Below are positions 28-10,161 of a stretch of DNA of 14,001 nucleotides, one piece after another. The notes beneath the pieces are model-generated. The model was not told the origin of the DNA. It ran no database searches and saw only the letters and a program-made list of their open reading frames with translations. Origin of the DNA: Vairimorpha apis BRL 01 (Eukaryota; Microsporidia; Nosematidae); contig KE647143.1 of NCBI GenBank assembly GCA_000447185.1, forward strand, positions 3,467 through 17,467. The letters run 5' to 3'. Each line of letters begins with the position of its first letter. The stretch's first letter is position 1. Made by a program: the position numbers and the translations under genes.

Positions 28-1251
28 ATGAACCTGACGATTGAAAAACCTAGTACGCTCATAAAAATTGCAAAAACTCAAAATAAAGAGCAATTAATTA
101 ACACAAATATTTATAAAAATTTTCAACATGAAGGTATAAATTTTTATAATATAAATTTATCAAATTCTCAGTATGTTTTAGACGAATCTAAAATTTTAAA
201 TGATTTATCAAACATGCAAGGTAAATTTGAAAATGACATTAACGAAACTAAAAATAAAAAATAAAATTATGGAAATTACAAAATCTAAAAAGTTTGAAGC
301 CAAAAGAAATAATAACAAATAATTTTACTTTTAGTCCATATTTGTTGAATTCTAATATTGATCAAATTTTTATTTTTTCTACATTAAAATTTGATCTTAG
401 AGTAAAAAATTTTATTATTTTTGATGATTATATAATGGTTTATTTTTTTGTTTGAGTGATTCTTTATCATTTTATAGACAATATTACCATTTTTTTGAAT
501 TGTCATTTCAAGTAATTAATGATTGGAGATCTAATTCTTTGGATAATTTATTAGAGCAAGAAAAAAAATATTTATTTTCAAAAAAACCATTTGATGAAAA
601 AAATGATTTTAATTATTTAAATGAAATAAAATCTGAAAAAACAGAATATGGAAGAAAAAGATTTTTTTCACAGGTAGAATATTTTAATAATCTAAAATCT
701 GGTTTATCAAAAGTCGAAATTTTGCAAATGATAAATGATTTAGATAATTGTAATATCGATTTTGTATTTAAAGATACAAAAAAACTCGCAGTTGGTAGCA
801 AATCTAATAAGATAATGCAAGATGCTATCAAAATAATGTCAGGTGATGAAATATCTAAAACTTATGATTGTCTGGAATATGACATAGTTCCAATATGTTC
901 TACTAAACATGGTGCATATACGATTCAAACACTTTTAAATTATTCAACAAACAAACATCATAGAAGATTAATTTCTAAGTACTTTAAAAAAGAAGGAGAA
1001 TTTTTATTAGCTCATGACATTGGAAATTATACATTTCAAAAATTACTAACTTTTGATCCAAATCTAGTCCGAAATTTTTTTTGTCTAATTTTGAGGATGT
1101 TTTGAATTCTGAGCTTGGATTTAAAGTTTTTAAAAGATGCAGTGATCATTTAGAAAAATGTAAAAATGATATTATGAAAATACTTTTACAACGGTCAGAT
1201 ATTCCTGATGCAACAATTAATCAAATAAGAAATATTATTGCACATTTGTAA
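28..1251 (+). CDS. Pumilio-repeat (PUF/Nop9-like) RNA-binding protein, interrupted by three apparent frameshifts
   Basis: The gene reads through three frames. Frame 1 runs from ATG 28 to a stop at 262-264, frame 3 continues from about 258 to about 449, frame 2 from about 450 to 1105, and frame 1 from about 1081 to the TAA at 1249-1251. Each switch falls on an A or T run (256-261, 443-449, 1075-1082) and is explained by one missing base, which would give about 408 residues. The C-terminal half carries alpha-helical repeats of pumilio type: KHGAYTIQTLL (near 905-940) and DIGNYTFQKLL (near 1015-1050) match the conserved helix that contacts RNA bases, and a weaker repeat, SNKIMQDAIKIM, precedes them. 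The family binds single-stranded RNA, either regulating mRNA (PUF) or acting in pre-rRNA processing (Nop9/Puf6). I cannot decide which. The N-terminal third has no recognised domain, so joining it to the repeat part is an inference. No ATG supports a start at 452, because that codon is TTG. Confidence 0.7.
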
Positions 1252-1264
1252 ATTATAATTTATT

Positions 1265-2937
1265 TTATATTTTGTACGTATCTTTTATAATTTCAACACA
1301 ATCATTATAAATCTTCTGATTTATAAATAATTCATCAAATTTTGTTTTAATTATTGAAGTAGAATTTATACAAGTTTCTAATAATAAAATAGCAGAATAT
1401 ATGTCTTCTTCATCTACATTATGTTTTCCTAAAATTTTTGCATGTGACTCCGAAATACGCACTAAACTTTCAAGCATACGAACTGTATTAAATTCATTTG
1501 GTCCTTCCGTTGATTTTCTTTTTAAATAATAAGTCAATAATTTATTTGACATATTTTCACTAATTTTAACATCATTTTTTCTTATATGTTTAATAAATTT
1601 TTTTAATTTATTAATATTCCATTCATTATTAGATTTTTCTTTAGTTACAATATATTGACGATTTAAAATTACATCTGCAATTTTAGCATCTTTACATTTA
1701 TCTTTTGTATCAAACATACCAAATATTAAATCAAACCTGCTTACTAAAGGTGTACTTATACAAGTATTTTCCGAAACCGTTTTATTATTTTCATATTGAT
1801 AACGAATATTACATGCTGCAATTATAGAACATCGTGCATTAAAAGTTGTAAGTATTCCGGCTTTCGCTACACTCAATGTTTGTTGTTCCATAGCTTCTAA
1901 CAAACCGCCTTTTTCATTAATTTTTAATTTATTAAATTCATCAATACAACAAATTCCCATATCAGCTAGTAAAAGAGCACCTGCTTCAAGAGACCAATCT
2001 TTTCCTTGTTTAATTGCACAAGATGTAAGACCTGCGTTACTTGTTCCAACACCATTTGTTAAAATAGACGGAGTTATTAATTTTGAAGTAGTATTTAAAA
2101 AACAAGTTTTTCCTGTACCAGAATCACCAATGAGTAAAACGTGAGAAATTTGTCGAGTTTGATTAGTAATTTTTTTTCTTCCTTGTGTTCATTAACTAGT
2201 ACTAATAAAAGACCTAATTTTATATTTGAATAACCATAAATTTCAGTAGTAAATGAATTAATCAATATTTTTCTTTTTTCAAATGATGAAAGATTATTAA
2301 AATCCAAAAAGCAATCTAAAAAATCATTATCATTTTCTTCATAGTTCTCTATTTTTGAAATATGTAATGCTTTAATATTTAAAGCAGTTTGAATTTTTTC
2401 ATTATTTTTTAAAACTTTCCATTTTAAAGATAAAATTCCAACAACAATAACTTCTTGACCTGCAACAAAAAGTCCTGCATTATTTCCTTCTATGTTAATT
2501 TCATATAGATCAGTGAATTTATTAACATTGCCAATATTTTGTATTTTAATTGATTGTGTCTTAATGGATTCATTAAGACATTCTTTTTTAAAAACAGAAT
2601 TTGACCCACATGTTTCACATAAAATCAAACCTGGCTTTTCGTAAAAAAAGCCTATAGAATTACATTTTAAACAATTATATTCTGTTTTGATATTTTTCAA
2701 TAAAACAGGACCAGTTCTTATAATTGTTCCTTTAACTCCTATAATTTTATTAATATTAGCAGATTGCATAAAATTATTTCTAAATAAAACGTAAGGTATT
2801 CCAGTAAGTGTTTTATGATAAATTGATGGATGATTATTAACATTCAAAACAAGTTGATTTGCTAATTTTGGATCATTATTACATAATTCCAATAAATTAA
2901 TTATATCAGATTCTGGTAATGCATTTAAAGTAAGCAT
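1265..2937 (-). CDS. MCM9: MCM9-like helicase (MCM N domain plus AAA+ ATPase), one frameshift before Walker A
   Basis: Starts at ATG 2935-2937, with CCC 6-8 bases upstream. Residues 1-60 form the MCM A domain. A zinc finger has C89xxC92 and C107xxC110, and an OB fold follows, with KGTIIRTGP near residue 70 and VGILSLKWK near 190. The frame breaks at the eight-base T run at 2170-2177. Adding one base continues straight into Walker A GDSGTGKT (2105-2128), then LEAGALLLADMGICCIDEF (Walker B, around 1933-1985), EAMEQQTLSVAKAG, sensor 1 IIAACN and arginine-finger motif SRFDLI. The lid region contains NTVRMLESLVRISESHAKI. The repaired length is about 557 residues. The tryptophan after the OB-fold GIL, the CCIDEF Walker B, the LLETCINS segment and the sequence after it resemble MCM9 more than MCM2-7 or MCM8. 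MCM9 works with MCM8 in homologous recombination and DNA synthesis at repair sites. The long C-terminal tail of animal MCM9 is missing. It ends 13 bases from the pumilio gene, tail to tail. MCM is certain; the MCM9 subfamily is likely. Confidence 0.88.
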
Positions 2938-3047: not shown

Positions 3048-4001
3048 TTATTTAAATTTCTTTAAGTATTCATAAGGTTTGTCTATAACCTCGTTTAAAT
3101 ATATACTTTCATCCTCTTCACTTTCTTCGACATATTCATAATCAGAAGATAAATATTTTTTAGGTTGAATTGGAGGAATCATTTTTAATAATTCAATTTC
3201 ATCCCATTTAATTCTTTCAAAAAATGGATGATTTTTAATATCTTCAAAACCCCAATATCCTAATCGTTCTTGTCTCTTATTGCTTAACAATTTTTTTATT
3301 AAATCGCCGGCCAAAACACTAATATAAGGAGGTATTATAAATTTAGAATCTAGAATTTTTTTATAAATCCTATTAGTGTCTCTATCAAAAAAAGGTGGAT
3401 CTCCGGTTAGCATTTCATATAAAATAACTCCAAACGACCAATAATCACTTTCTAATCCATCGTCTTCATTTAACAATTTTTCAGGCGACATATATTCTGG
3501 TGTACCAGAAATTATATGAGACTTTTCAGTATCGTTTACAGCAAAACCAAAATCCGTTAATTTAATATGACCACATGGATTCAATAAAATATTTTCTGGT
3601 TTTAGATCTCTGTATAATAGTCCACGTTTATGAATATACTCTAAAGCACTTAATATTTCTACAGCAAAAAATAATGTGGCATACTCACTAAACCTACCAA
3701 ATCTTCTAAGCCAATAAAAAAGTTCTCCGCCACTTACGTAATCTAAAACTAAACCTAGATATCTTTCATTTTTTACAAGAGAAATAAGTTTAGTAATAAA
3801 AATATGACCGTTAACCATTTTTAAAGCATTTATCTCATTTTCAACTTGATCAGCTTGTCTCATTAATAGTAATTTACGTCTATTTAAAATTTTTGTTGCA
3901 AAATATACAGGTTTTTCTTTTTTTGCAGAGACTAAATATACTTTACCAAAAGCGCCTGCTCCAATTTTTCTGATAAAAACCAAATTTTCAATTTCTAACA
4001 T
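3048..4001 (-). CDS. AGC-family protein kinase, cAMP-dependent protein kinase (PKA) catalytic-subunit-like
   Basis: Complete 317-residue Ser/Thr kinase. The glycine loop is GAGAFG (14-19), the ATP lysine K37 (in FATK), the helix-C glutamate E56, the catalytic loop YRDLKPEN (130-137, catalytic D132), the metal-binding DFG 150-152, and the APE equivalent SPE 172-174. After the kinase core, WDEIELLKMIPPIQPK and the acidic DYEYVEESEEDE (288-298) align with the PKA C-tail (FDDYEEE region). The end, PYEYLKKFK, takes the place of the usual FxxF tail. This supports PKA over other AGC kinases. PKA phosphorylates cytosolic and nuclear targets when cAMP releases its regulatory subunit; no regulatory subunit is in this window. 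Oddity: the activation-loop threonine (PKA T197) is replaced by I164, while S161 lies at the T195 position. The start is the only suitable ATG and has TACCC upstream. It lies 110 bases upstream of the MCM9-like gene on the same strand. Confidence 0.9.
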   Translation of the reverse strand: MLEIENLVFIRKIGAGAFGKVYLVSAKKEKPVYFATKILNRRKLLLMRQADQVENEINALKMVNGHIFITKLISLVKNERYLGLVLDYVSGGELFYWLRRFGRFSEYATLFFAVEILSALEYIHKRGLLYRDLKPENILLNPCGHIKLTDFGFAVNDTEKSHIISGTPEYMSPEKLLNEDDGLESDYWSFGVILYEMLTGDPPFFDRDTNRIYKKILDSKFIIPPYISVLAGDLIKKLLSNKRQERLGYWGFEDIKNHPFFERIKWDEIELLKMIPPIQPKKYLSSDYEYVEESEEDESIYLNEVIDKPYEYLKKFK

Positions 4002-4012: not shown

Positions 4013-5321
4013 TAAAAATTATTTTTAATATTAAAATATTTGAACTTATATTTTTTTTAGTGCAATATTAAAGAAAAATTAAACTTGAATAAATTTTTTA
4101 TTTTACATATTAAAATAATTTTTTTAATTAACTTTCCAAAATAATTTAAATTTTTATTATTTATATAAAATAAAATATAAAGTAAAATTATATATTTTAA
4201 ATAGATTTAAATATAAAATAACGCAATATTATAAAAATATCTTTTTATATTTTAATTTATAAAATATTTAATGCAAAAAAATACAATAATTGCGAATATT
4301 AGTATTTTAGATGAAATTAATTTATATTATAATTTAAAAAGCTTATTATTTAAGATACAATATACACATACAATTTATTAATTGATTAAGTTGTATTATA
4401 AAAATTGTTTACGAAAAAATAAAATAAAAGTTTTATATATTTATTGTTTGAACTAAATTTTATAAAATTATTTTTTAGATAATAAAAATTAATCAATAAG
4501 TTTATTTAAAATTCTTATAACTTGTTAATTATTAATTAATTTTATAAATTTCTAAAATTTTATATTCATAAAACAATATTAATATTTTAAAATACAATAA
4601 AACTTTAAAATTTTAGTTTTAAATAATTAGATATTATCTTATAATTAACAATATATATTACTTAAAAAAACTTATTTACAATTATAAAAATTTCAAATTT
4701 ATATTTCAAAAAATATTCTAATTAATATAAAAAGGTACTTTTTAAATTTTATATTATTATAATATAAACATTTAAAGTAATGTATATTAACTAAAAAATA
4801 CATTTAAAGCAATATTAATAATAATTTATTGTGTACATTAATTTAGCATTAAAAAAAATAAATACAATTATTTTATTGTGTTAACATAAAAAAAATTATT
4901 TATTTAATAACGTTGTAATACCAAAAATTATAATTTAAAAAAAAATACATTTTAGGTCATAACATTTATTTTTTAATTTTTATTACCAATAAAAATAGCT
5001 TTTTAAAACGTTTAATTTTATTTATCAGAAAAATAAACTATTTGTTTTTTTTGTTACAAAAGATATAATTAGTTCATCAAATGCAATATATAAAAATGTT
5101 ATATTATTGTTTTAAATTAAAAATAATAAATTCTAAATGTATTATTTTTAAATATCATCTAAATAAAAATTACTAATATATATACTTTTAATTTTATAAA
5201 AATATGTTTGACGTTTGAAATTTAAAAAAAATTGTTCGTCAGTTGATTATTTTTATTTTTGATATTCTCCTTTATTTATCATTTAATTTATAAATTCAAG
5301 TTGCAAAGTACTTTTTCAAAA
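4013..5321. other. A/T-rich spacer without recognisable genes
   Basis: About 1.3 kb of nearly pure A/T between the divergently oriented kinase and Sel1 genes. All six frames are closed by frequent stops, and I see no tRNA, rRNA or coding motif. Homopolymer runs and short A/T repeats dominate. Both promoters should lie here. The only GC-containing patches near the Sel1 gene are TTTGACGTTTG (about 5208), TTGTTCGTCAG (about 5232) and ATTCTCCTTTAT (about 5264), any of which could be part of a promoter. Confidence 0.6.
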
Positions 5322-6518
5322 ATGAACGTACCAAGATACAGGCAAGAAAAAAAACTTTTTCGATTGTATGAAAATGACATCAATAACGACAATATTAAAA
5401 AATTTTGTAAATTTTTAAATATATTTATAGATACTTATGAAGATGAAAATAGTTTAATGAGACATACCTTCATTACATATGATCCTTTTATTGAATTAAA
5501 TTCTACAATAATCGAATGTAAAAAATATTATAAAATTGTTTTTAGCAAATTATCGAATTTTGTAGATAATTACAAATCATTTTTAAATAAACCAAAATAC
5601 ATTGGAAATATAATTGCATATATGGGATATATTTATGAGTATGGACTTTTTGATATAAGTTATAATAAAAATACAGCTTTCCAATATTATAAATTAGCAG
5701 CTAAAGTACATTCTCCTTATGGTACTTTTAAATTAGCACAATGTTATGAAAAAGGTATTGGATGTGAAAAAAATATTCAAAAATCTTTATTATTTTATAA
5801 ATGTTCTGCAAAATTAGGATGTATACAAGGATTACATACCTTTGGAACAATTTTATTACAGAATAATTTAAAAGGTGAATTCGTTGAAGAATCTGCATGT
5901 TTTTATTTACAACTTGCTATTAAAAAAACAAAATTAGAAGAATATCCATATGTTTTTTACGATTATGGTAGATATCTAGAATATAAATTAAATGATAAAT
6001 TTATCTCACAAGTAGAATATTGTTTTCAAATTTATTTAAAAGGTTCGGAAATTGAATGTCCTAATTGTCAATTTAGAGTTGCACAGTGCTTTGAATTGGG
6101 TAATTTAAATATATCTATAGATATTGCTCAATCTTTAAAAATGTATATAAAAGCAGCATTTAACGGACATGTTGAAGCACAATTAAAAGTAGCACAAATT
6201 ATTATTGAAAATGAAAATTCAACTATATTTGATTTTTCAAAGGCTTTTAAATATGCCTTTAAAGCTGCCGTAAAAGAAAATTGTATTGCTATAAAACTTG
6301 TTTCGATTTTTTATGAAAAAGGTATAGGAACACCTAAAAATTTAAATGCATCTTTATGGTGGAATAAAATTTTTGAAATTGTAAAGAAAAAGAAAAATTT
6401 AACTCTAAATTCACCGATTTTTGAAAAATTAGAAAATGTTATCATTCAAGATGATATTCCATTACAACCTGTTTTTGTAAATAATATAACAACTGCTAAT
6501 GCTTTAAAAGTAAAATGA
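5322..6518 (+). CDS. Sel1-like repeat protein, Skt5/Chs4-type (chitin synthase activator-like)
   Basis: Complete 398-residue protein from ATG 5322, in context CAAAAATG. The frame is open for 21 more codons upstream, but only to a TTG, so the ATG is preferred. Residues 1-95 are a charged helical region with no known domain. From about 98 to 356 there are tandem Sel1 repeats: AFQYYKLAAKVHSPYG (119-134), KLAQCYEKGIGCEKN (137-151) with SLLFYKCSAKLG (155-166), a diverged pair to about 245, FRVAQCFELG...SLKMYIKAAFNGHVEAQ (251-287) and IFYEKGIGTPKNLNASLWWNK (329-349). Order and spacing, including the segment EEYPYVFYDYGRYLE (206-220), resemble fungal Skt5/Chs4, which activates and localises chitin synthase at the plasma membrane. 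A role in spore-wall chitin deposition would fit a microsporidian but is inferred. The C-terminus, ALKVK, lacks the CAAX prenylation box found in Skt5/Chs4. Another Sel1 adaptor function cannot be excluded. Confidence 0.85.
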   Translation: MNVPRYRQEKKLFRLYENDINNDNIKKFCKFLNIFIDTYEDENSLMRHTFITYDPFIELNSTIIECKKYYKIVFSKLSNFVDNYKSFLNKPKYIGNIIAYMGYIYEYGLFDISYNKNTAFQYYKLAAKVHSPYGTFKLAQCYEKGIGCEKNIQKSLLFYKCSAKLGCIQGLHTFGTILLQNNLKGEFVEESACFYLQLAIKKTKLEEYPYVFYDYGRYLEYKLNDKFISQVEYCFQIYLKGSEIECPNCQFRVAQCFELGNLNISIDIAQSLKMYIKAAFNGHVEAQLKVAQIIIENENSTIFDFSKAFKYAFKAAVKENCIAIKLVSIFYEKGIGTPKNLNASLWWNKIFEIVKKKKNLTLNSPIFEKLENVIIQDDIPLQPVFVNNITTANALKVK

Positions 6519-7529: not shown

Positions 7530-7591
7530 AAAATAATTGGTTGATTTTTCTATTAAAAGATTTTTTATTTAATAGACATGAAAGCGGATGA
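7499..7591 (+). other. Short upstream ORF (30 codons) overlapping the start of the membrane protein gene
   Basis: ATG 7499 lies in the loop of the inverted repeat. It opens a 30-codon frame (begins MLKELITKGEKNNW) that ends at TGA 7589-7591, 14 bases inside the main coding region and in another frame. If the transcript begins upstream, translation of this frame would reduce initiation at 7578. Microsporidian leaders are often very short, so the frame may not be transcribed at all. Its length is only modestly above chance. Confidence 0.25.
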
Positions 7592-8141
7592 AGTAGGCGA
7601 TAAAGTTCAACAAGAAACACAAGAAGCAGAAAAAAAAGTACAAAATACTATTAAAAAAGTTCAGGAATCAAAATTAAGTAGATATCTTCCTACAGAAATA
7701 AAAGAAGTGAAAATTAAAGATATTGTAAAACTTTTAATGCTTTCAATATTTTCGAATTTTCTTCCTTTATATATTATTTTGGGAGGACCATGGCCAAAAT
7801 ATATTAATTTTTTACGATATATCTTTTTTCCTTTGTTTATAGTATTGTTTTCTGTTCAAGTTTTTTTGGGAATTATTACATATATTACTTGTATAGAAGG
7901 TTTACATATATATTTAACAATAGCAACTGTTCTCAAATCAGCTTTAGTATTAGTTTTACTTACAATTATTGAATTTAAATTTAGTTTTTTGCAGTTTTTT
8001 ATAATTTTTACTTACCTCGCATGGCATACTGCTTTAGATATAGCTTTTTTGTATTATATTGCAATTTTATTAAACAATGAAAATTCAAAAACATATGATG
8101 AACATGGAGTTGAAATAAAAAAGGATAACGAAAAAGTTTGA
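7578..8141 (+). CDS. Predicted membrane protein with about four transmembrane segments, family not recognised
   Basis: A complete 187-residue protein whose family I do not recognise. Residues 1-46 are polar and charged, strongly helical and probably coiled coil (QQETQEAEKKVQNTIKKVQ). Hydrophobic spans follow at about 48-69 (ending LGGPWPKY), 80-104, 108-131 and 136-165. The tail from 166 to 187 is charged and polar. There is no signal peptide, so it probably sits in an internal or plasma membrane with both termini in the cytosol. The third span is interrupted by LLTIIEFKFS, and the fourth contains the polar stretch WHTALD. I considered the TB2/DP1/HVA22 (Yop1) family, but its W-x-x-Y-W signature is absent. 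The ATG at 7578 is the first in frame after a stop at 7554-7556. Upstream lie a 9-base inverted repeat and a short overlapping ORF, and 14 bases after the stop there is a possible hairpin. Confidence 0.8.
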   Translation: MKADEVGDKVQQETQEAEKKVQNTIKKVQESKLSRYLPTEIKEVKIKDIVKLLMLSIFSNFLPLYIILGGPWPKYINFLRYIFFPLFIVLFSVQVFLGIITYITCIEGLHIYLTIATVLKSALVLVLLTIIEFKFSFLQFFIIFTYLAWHTALDIAFLYYIAILLNNENSKTYDEHGVEIKKDNEKV

Positions 8142-9588: not shown

Positions 9589-10161
9589 TTATGGTGATGG
9601 TATAATATTACGTTTTTTCCTTTTTATTTCTTCTATTATGATAATAAATCCGTGTAATGATGTTCGACCGTTTAATGTATGTGCATACACAATATGCTTG
9701 TTATGTTCATAATAATTAGAAATAATATTTGTTGGTTTTATAATTTCATTACTTTTTACAAAAATCGCCCAAAGTTGATTATCTTTATATTTACAATCAT
9801 AAAATGCTACTTTTAATTCTCTTTTAGGAATTAACATGCTAGTTTCAGCTTCTAAACATTTATTATTTTTCATTAGGAAAAATCGTGATTCACCGTCAAA
9901 TACTATTTTAAATGAACTATCACCTGTTGAAAATTGATTTTGTATAATTATATTATTGTCACTTAAAATTAAATTTTTCTTAATAATTGCATCTGTAAAA
10001 TTCATATTTCCTAAATCAGAATAGCTAAATTTAAATTCAACTGGTGAGTAAAAACCTGACAATATTAGAGTATCATTTAATTTAGATAGAAAACTGCTTC
10101 CTGTGCCCTGTTTAATATAAAATCTAGAGGATGCTTGTAATAAAAATATAAATAAAAACAT
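9589..10161 (-). CDS. Secreted ricin-B-lectin-like protein; C-terminus may continue in another frame to 9513
   Basis: 190 residues from ATG 10161. The N-terminus, MFLFIFLLQASS, is a short signal peptide, so the protein is likely secreted or at the cell surface. The rest is beta-rich, and the stretch FFLMKNNKCLEAE (95-106) ... VAFYDCKYKDNQLWAI (118-133) has the CxxE-like start, paired cysteines (C102, C123) and QxW core (QLW 129-131) of a single ricin-B beta-trefoil lobe. Such proteins bind sugars and, in microsporidia, are secreted and implicated in host-cell adhesion; a role here is inferred. No toxin catalytic domain is present. The frame stops at 9589-9591, but an adjacent frame is open from about 9622 to TAA 9513-9515, reads like coding sequence (HHHKDKHSILKQKNDQ), and could be the true C-terminus if the T run at 9613-9618 has one base too many, giving about 215 residues. 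Confidence 0.65.
   Translation of the reverse strand: MFLFIFLLQASSRFYIKQGTGSSFLSKLNDTLILSGFYSPVEFKFSYSDLGNMNFTDAIIKKNLILSDNNIIIQNQFSTGDSSFKIVFDGESRFFLMKNNKCLEAETSMLIPKRELKVAFYDCKYKDNQLWAIFVKSNEIIKPTNIISNYYEHNKHIVYAHTLNGRTSLHGFIIIIEEIKRKKRNIIPSP

What the first reader, a model, noticed from the sequence alone, without database searches (positions are those of the whole stretch)
1265..2937. MCM9-type helicase in a reduced, A/T-rich, probably microsporidian genome
Motif by motif, the protein follows MCM9 rather than the replicative MCMs: GTIIRT with a CxxC zinc finger close behind, GIL..KWK in the OB fold, the run LEAGALLLADMGICCIDEF, EAMEQQTLSVAKAG, and MLESLVRISESHAKI followed by the LLETCINS segment. 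MCM9 and its partner MCM8 are missing from most fungi, so keeping MCM9 in a reduced genome would bear on how such organisms do recombination repair. It would also predict an MCM8 gene elsewhere. It lacks the long C-terminal tail of animal MCM9 and would be a near-minimal version.
Basis: partly seen in the sequence, partly recalled or inferred. Interest (0 to 1): 0.75.

Follow-up and report, generated by a model that had tools for sequence, protein, structure and literature searches.

The report
Ordinary microsporidian MCM9 repair helicase
A bee-parasite genome keeps MCM9, one half of a DNA-repair helicase that many fungi have lost; the gene is real and its partner MCM8 is there too, but microsporidia were already known to keep this pair.

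Summary
Window 1265-2937 (minus strand) encodes an MCM helicase in two overlapping frames, broken once near 2170-2190; an unbroken 557-aa near-copy (99% identical) exists. It is MCM9: human MCM9 is the best solved-structure match (260 bits, next 184), and a 70-row tree places it in MCM9 at 100/100 (no MCM6 row). The genome is Nosema (Vairimorpha) apis: its MCM3 equals the V. apis BRL 01 record, on a contig of the same length. The predicted MCM8 is on contig C153. The identification is right; the surprise is not new: Liu et al. 2009 list MCM8 and MCM9 in Encephalitozoon cuniculi, relatives are annotated as MCM9, and the short form is usual in microsporidia. One lead goes further: microsporidian MCM9 has lost the sensor-1 asparagine in 45 of 65 rows, while 120 of 120 MCM8 rows and 120 of 120 hits of an MCM2-7 profile keep it. 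This fits human data in which the MCM8 ATPase matters more. The window copy keeps the asparagine.

The parts
2095..2937 (-). N-terminal open frame of MCM9: N-domain, OB fold (MCM_OB) with C4 zinc finger, start of the AAA+ domain; the frame leaves the MCM9 reading near 2170-2190
   Evidence: ORF; MCM_OB 2.8e-9; four zinc cysteines, each C in 65 of the first 66 homologs, gap in one
1265..2188 (-). C-terminal open frame of MCM9 (307 aa, no stop inside): Walker A, Walker B, sensor 1, arginine finger, AAA lid, 31-aa tail
   Evidence: frame; MCM 1.7e-37, MCM_lid 7.1e-15 on the ORF 1265-1960; catalytic columns, tail
2170..2190 (-). Place of the single frame break, at an A-run on the coding strand; most likely an assembly error, since an unbroken near-copy exists
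   Evidence: P0001 (557 aa) spans it unbroken at 99% identity

Best explanation
The gene is the MCM9 of Nosema (Vairimorpha) apis. With MCM8, encoded elsewhere in the same genome, it should form the alternating MCM8-MCM9 hexamer that unwinds DNA 3'-5' at recombination intermediates and helps DNA synthesis after RAD51 strand invasion. Shown here: identity, intact catalytic and zinc residues, presence of MCM8, a RAD51-family gene and a DMC1. Inferred from the human proteins: assembly with MCM8, polarity, and the role in homologous recombination. The frame break in this assembly is probably a sequencing error, not a pseudogene.
For: PDB: human MCM9 260 bits against 184 for the best chain that is not MCM9. 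Tree of 70 rows: MCM9 clade 100/100 including the window, nearest P0001, P0002, V. necatrix and N. granulosis; MCM8 clade separate at 100/99. Protein search: 2657 relatives among 7989 scored candidates, 120 listed; of the 16 rows in ranks 1-66 that show an organism name, 15 are microsporidian and one is labelled as a snail. MCM8 on C153: PDB MCM8 371 bits against 281 next; Pfam WHD_MCM8 34.0 bits, cut-off 26. RAD51-family gene on C153 about 1 kb from MCM8 and a DMC1 on C162. Unbroken near-copy P0001, 557 aa, cluster of 14 sequences. The N. apis genome was sequenced by 454 (passages of PMC3726280); MCM5, MCM7 and one MCM3 copy are also split in frame in the held assembly.
Against: The window copy is broken as assembled, and P0001 comes from an unnamed source, so a real break in some strains is not excluded. 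No expression or protein data. MCM6 was not found in the held contigs, and the tree has no MCM6 row. Ten of the 70 tree rows, the window among them, have a letter make-up unlike the alignment's, which the model does not allow for. SPO11's TP6A_N domain was not found.
Confidence: 0.95

Rival explanations
1. A pseudogene: MCM9 was kept until recently and is now broken in N. apis.
For: The frame is broken in the window.
Against: The two frames together cover the whole protein and the catalytic and zinc residues stand; an unbroken copy 99% identical exists as a cluster of 14 sequences; other MCM genes of the same assembly are split in frame too.
Confidence: 0.04
2. A divergent replicative MCM, for example one standing in for MCM6, which the genome searches did not find.
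For: MCM6 was seen in none of three family searches.
Against: The tree puts the protein inside MCM9 with 100/100 (without an MCM6 row); the best MCM6 chain scores 172 bits against 260 for MCM9. The held genome is 5.96 Mb of a genome reported at 8.5 Mb, so a missing gene is expected from incompleteness.
Confidence: 0.01
3. A contaminant contig from another organism.
For: RF02542 (microsporidian SSU rRNA) had no match in G000, so the rRNA cannot be used to name the genome.
Against: The protein's kin are microsporidian; the genome's MCM3 is identical to the V. apis record; the window also holds a DUF5090 protein, a family that I recall as microsporidian (no call).
Confidence: 0.01

Closest known systems
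MCM9 of other microsporidia (Vairimorpha necatrix P0004, Nosema granulosis P0005, Encephalitozoon cuniculi P0021)
   Same: Similar length (562, 567, 563 aa against 557), identity 60%, 56% and 44% over 98-99% of the query, the three MCM domains precomputed for each; these three, like the window, keep the sensor-1 asparagine
   Different: Only sequence divergence; 45 of 65 microsporidian MCM9 rows have lost that asparagine
Human MCM9 (PDB 7wi7_B, 8s91_D)
   Same: Alignable over residues 41-526 of the query, E 4.1e-76
   Different: The longer human chain has 1143 aa; the window has a 31-aa tail after the lid and a shorter N-domain (69 residues before GTIIRT against a median of 121 in ranks 67-120)
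Human MCM8 (PDB 7wi7_A)
   Same: Related family and presumed partner; the genome's own MCM8 is on C153
   Different: The window protein scores 143.5 bits to MCM8 against 260 to MCM9

Membership tests
MCM9 | MCM AAA+ core (Walker A, Walker B, sensor 1, arginine finger) and AAA lid | tested here: met
   Pfam MCM and MCM_lid over cut-off; GDSGTGKT, CIDEF, AACN, SRFD present
MCM9 | N-terminal OB fold with CxxC...CxxC zinc finger | tested here: met
   MCM_OB 37.2 bits, cut-off 24.8; cysteines 89, 92, 107, 110, each C in 65 of the first 66 homologs
MCM9 | Phylogenetic place inside MCM9, apart from MCM8 and MCM2-7 | tested here: met
   100/100 in a 70-row tree. MCM6 not sampled; MCM2 is one row (the genome's own), MCM5 and MCM7 two rows each.
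MCM9 | Co-occurrence with MCM8 | tested here: met
   C153
MCM9 | Long C-terminal extension as in animal MCM9 (not general: tails of ranks 67-120 run from 29 to 363 aa) | tested here: not met
   31-aa tail; not counted as defining, since other MCM9s lack it too
MCM9 | Forms a hexamer with MCM8 and unwinds DNA | not testable with these tools
   Inferred from human MCM8-9 (abstract and passages of PMC11055865)
HROB (partner; candidate 148-aa ORF on C62, not in the window) | Pfam PF15072 at or above its gathering score | tested here: not met
   26.0 bits, cut-off 30.8, E 8.8e-6, best of two Pfam matches of that ORF, the other a general OB fold at 0.0093; 28.3 bits in the genome search, in which one bacterial control of 14 also gave a match under the cut-off; best PDB match E 0.16, a ribosomal protein

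The most novel reading that the evidence does not exclude
In microsporidia the MCM8-MCM9 helicase is becoming a one-engine machine: MCM9 keeps the arginine finger that completes MCM8's ATPase site, while its own site decays (sensor-1 asparagine replaced in 45 of 65 rows, Walker-B glutamate in 10 of 65). MCM8 carries the motor. N. apis would be near the start of this path: it keeps the asparagine but lacks the proline that follows it in 42 of 53 non-microsporidian MCM9 rows.
Probability: 0.4. Interest if true: 0.55.

Novelty: new member of a known kind. Interest (0 to 1): 0.3.

Why it matters
It adds N. apis to the microsporidia with both MCM8 and MCM9, beside a RAD51-family gene and a DMC1, so recombination repair with this helicase pair is kept in a reduced genome although several fungal groups sampled by Liu et al. 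2009 lack it. The wider sequence set gives a natural test of a biochemical claim made for the human enzyme, that the MCM8 ATPase site matters more than the MCM9 site.

Tried and rejected
Replicative MCM: rejected by the tree and the scores, with the limit that no MCM6 row was available. MCM6 search: PF00493, PF17207 and PF17855 gave no MCM6 in G000; PF18263 gave nothing, but no control genome rang either, so that search says nothing. Naming the genome by rRNA: RF02542 found nothing; solved by the MCM3 identity. An open frame at the end of C192 first looked like a possible MCM6 start; I read it as the N-terminal part of MCM2, whose rest begins C26, because the OB domain stops at model position 68 on one and starts at 67 on the other. 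SPO11: TP6A_N had no match, not read as absence because the held genome is partial. HROB: below cut-off, kept as a lead only. A structure prediction was not run, since sequence evidence already decides the family.

Rows dropped or grouped: the tree used 28 of the 120 listed MCM9 hits, 20 of the 120 listed MCM8 hits and 15 of the 120 listed hits, chosen by me by name and spread, plus 7 sequences of the window's genome. For the sensor-1 count, ranks 1-66 were taken, P0023 (labelled as a snail, keeps N) was left out before the tree, P0068 (Binucleata) was added, and P0066 (keeps N) was left out after the tree put it outside the microsporidian clade. The quick tree has six rows marked as long branches. 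Losers and keepers of sensor 1 include 5 rows each without the Walker-B glutamate, so the two losses do not go together, which speaks against a simple stepwise decay. The 10 changes of the sensor-1 state cannot tell loss from regain. The control of 120 hits is mostly MCM4 and MCM3 by name and holds at least two records of unusual length (P0241, P0242) that may be fused gene models.

Full report
What is there. On the minus strand, window 1265-2937 holds one MCM gene in two overlapping frames. The frame 2095-2937 gives the N-domain and the OB fold with a C4 zinc finger; the frame open from 2188 to 1265 gives Walker A, Walker B, sensor 1, arginine finger, lid and a 31-residue tail. The coding switches frame once, near 2170-2190. 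Pfam finds MCM_OB in the first piece (37.2 bits, cut-off 24.8) and MCM (129.1 bits) and MCM_lid (55.7 bits) in the second.

Which MCM. The protein, read through with X at the break, matches human MCM9 in the PDB at 260 and 256 bits; the best other chain scores 184 and human MCM8 143.5. A search of 5.8 billion proteins found 2657 relatives among 7989 scored candidates and listed 120; the best is an unnamed 557-aa protein (P0001) that is 99% identical over the full length with no break, followed by P0002 (unnamed organism, 64%), P0003 (unnamed, 62%), Vairimorpha necatrix (60%, annotated DNA helicase MCM9) and Nosema granulosis (56%, putative DNA helicase MCM9), with Encephalitozoon species at 44-47%. 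A maximum-likelihood tree of 70 rows places the window within MCM9 at 100/100, next to P0001, P0002, V. necatrix and N. granulosis; MCM8 (100/99), MCM3 and MCM4 (both 100/100) are separate groups. Limits of the tree: no MCM6 row, one MCM2 row, two rows each of MCM5 and MCM7, ten rows (the window among them) with unusual letter make-up, and a midpoint root, so it does not test whether MCM8 and MCM9 are sisters.

Which organism. The window lies in G000:C81; G000 has 5,960,447 bases in 223 contigs. The N. apis genome paper (passages read, PMC3726280) reports 8.5 Mb, 18.78% GC and 454 sequencing. The held genome is therefore most likely a part of the N. apis assembly. 454 reads are known to miscount single-base runs (recalled, no call), which would explain the frame breaks seen in MCM9, MCM5, MCM7 and one of two MCM3 copies.

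Partners. The genome holds MCM8 on C153: human MCM8 is its best PDB match at 371 bits against 281 for the next, the MCM8 winged-helix domain is over its Pfam cut-off, and it falls in the MCM8 clade. About 1 kb away lies a RAD51-family gene (which member was not tested further); a second one on C162 is DMC1 by PDB score (425 bits DMC1, 349 RAD51). MCM2 (split over C192 and C26), MCM3, MCM4, MCM5 and MCM7 are present: own MCM3, MCM4, MCM5 and MCM7 join named records in the tree, while MCM2 is named from recalled family sequence. MCM6 was not found by three family searches, most likely because part of the genome is not in the held assembly. A 148-aa ORF on C62 has HROB, the known activator of MCM8-9, as its best Pfam match, at 26.0 bits against a cut-off of 30.8; one of 14 bacterial and archaeal control genomes also gave a match under the cut-off in that search, so this is a lead only.

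How it likely works. In the human enzyme, MCM8 and MCM9 alternate in a hexamer that moves 3'-5' and is stimulated by HROB; a Walker-A change in MCM8 abolishes unwinding, the same change in MCM9 reduces it moderately, and the authors state that both activities are important (abstract and passages of PMC11055865). The N. apis protein has the catalytic and zinc residues checked here. Assembly with MCM8 and a role after RAD51 are inferred, not shown.

What is known. Liu et al. 2009 (passages of PMC2667178) list both MCM8 and MCM9 as present in Encephalitozoon cuniculi and state that they were absent from all fungal genomes analysed except Encephalitozoon and Batrachochytrium. [quoted passage not shown] Names include MCM9 for V. 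necatrix, N. granulosis, two Pancytospora, Enteropsectra, Astathelohania and Binucleata. So retention of MCM9 in this group is not new. In the held library four papers join MCM9, MCM8 and microsporidia (I saw passages of all four), none joins MCM9 and Nosema, and three each hold MCM9 with 'sensor 1' (listing only) and Encephalitozoon with MCM8 (listing; the same papers). The library lacks most subscription journals.

Size. In ranks 1-66, 65 of 66 proteins have 28-45 residues after the lid (one has 1); in ranks 67-120, which include one microsporidian (P0068), the tails run from 29 to 363. The short form is the usual one in microsporidia, and tails of 35-40 residues also occur among the other rows.

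A pattern beyond the window. In the 65 microsporidian MCM9 rows the Walker-A lysine and the arginine finger are invariant (65 of 65 each) and the Walker-B aspartate stands in 64, but sensor-1 asparagine remains in 19, is replaced in 45 and gapped in 1, and Walker-B glutamate is replaced in 10. In the 53 other listed MCM9 rows the asparagine and the glutamate are kept in 53 of 53. MCM8 keeps both in 120 of 120 (54 in ranks 121-175 less P0170, 66 in the rest), and the 120 listed hits of the MCM2-7 profile keep both in 120 of 120. On a quick tree the sensor-1 state changes 10 times. The residue that MCM9 lends to MCM8's site is kept while those of its own site drift, which is what the human asymmetry would allow. 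The window copy keeps the asparagine but not the proline that follows it in 42 of 53 other MCM9s. Against a simple decay: V. necatrix, N. granulosis and the three Encephalitozoon rows shown keep the asparagine too, and losses of the asparagine and of the glutamate do not go together. Whether the changed sites still hydrolyse ATP is untested.

Verdict. A correct identification of an ordinary gene of a known kind. The lineage-wide change in the MCM9 active site is the part worth following.

Noticed in passing
ranks 1-66 (less P0023, P0066) and P0068; not the window copy: Microsporidian MCM9 has the sensor-1 asparagine replaced in 45 of 65 rows and the Walker-B glutamate in 10 of 65, while its arginine finger is kept in 65 of 65 and the listed MCM8 and MCM2-7-profile hits keep both residues.
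   Followed up: partly
L023:1189-2244 (G000:C162): A DMC1 gene by PDB score (425 bits against 349 for RAD51). PMC2680839 (passage) says DMC1 is absent in Encephalitozoon; PMC2866331 (passage) says Dmc1 was found in microsporidian genomes.
   Followed up: partly
L011:1276-1722 (G000:C62) and L012 (G000:C113): A 148-aa ORF with HROB as best Pfam match, under the cut-off; an almost identical stretch with part of this ORF starts contig C113, so the assembly holds duplicated stretches.
   Followed up: partly
G000:C128 and G000:C23: MCM3 occurs on two contigs: on C128 as one 626-aa ORF near the contig start, whose last residues differ from the other copy, and on C23 split in frame: redundant contigs or two alleles.
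   Followed up: no
lists: Nematocida species are named among the MCM4 hits but not among the 120 listed MCM9 or the 120 listed MCM8 hits; this may be joint loss of MCM8 and MCM9 in that genus, or only divergence below the list.
   Followed up: no
P0067 and other Coemansia rows: Coemansia, several chytrids and Rozella have proteins in the MCM9 list, and those sampled fall in the MCM9 clade; MCM9 retention in fungi is thus wider than the two genomes named in 2009.
   Followed up: no
window 3048-4001 (-), 5259-6518 (+), 7578-8141 (+): Neighbours: a protein kinase (Pkinase 3.3e-60), a Sel1-repeat protein (3.7e-21) and a DUF5090 protein (2.2e-28).
   Followed up: no
window 452-1105 (+): Weak PUF / NOP9-like match (E 0.002, under cut-off) in an ORF that appears to continue in another frame towards 1250, possibly a second frame break in the window.
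   Followed up: no
window 9589-10161 (-): ORF with a hydrophobic N-terminus and only weak matches, among them a ricin-B-type lectin fold (E 0.047, under cut-off).
   Followed up: no
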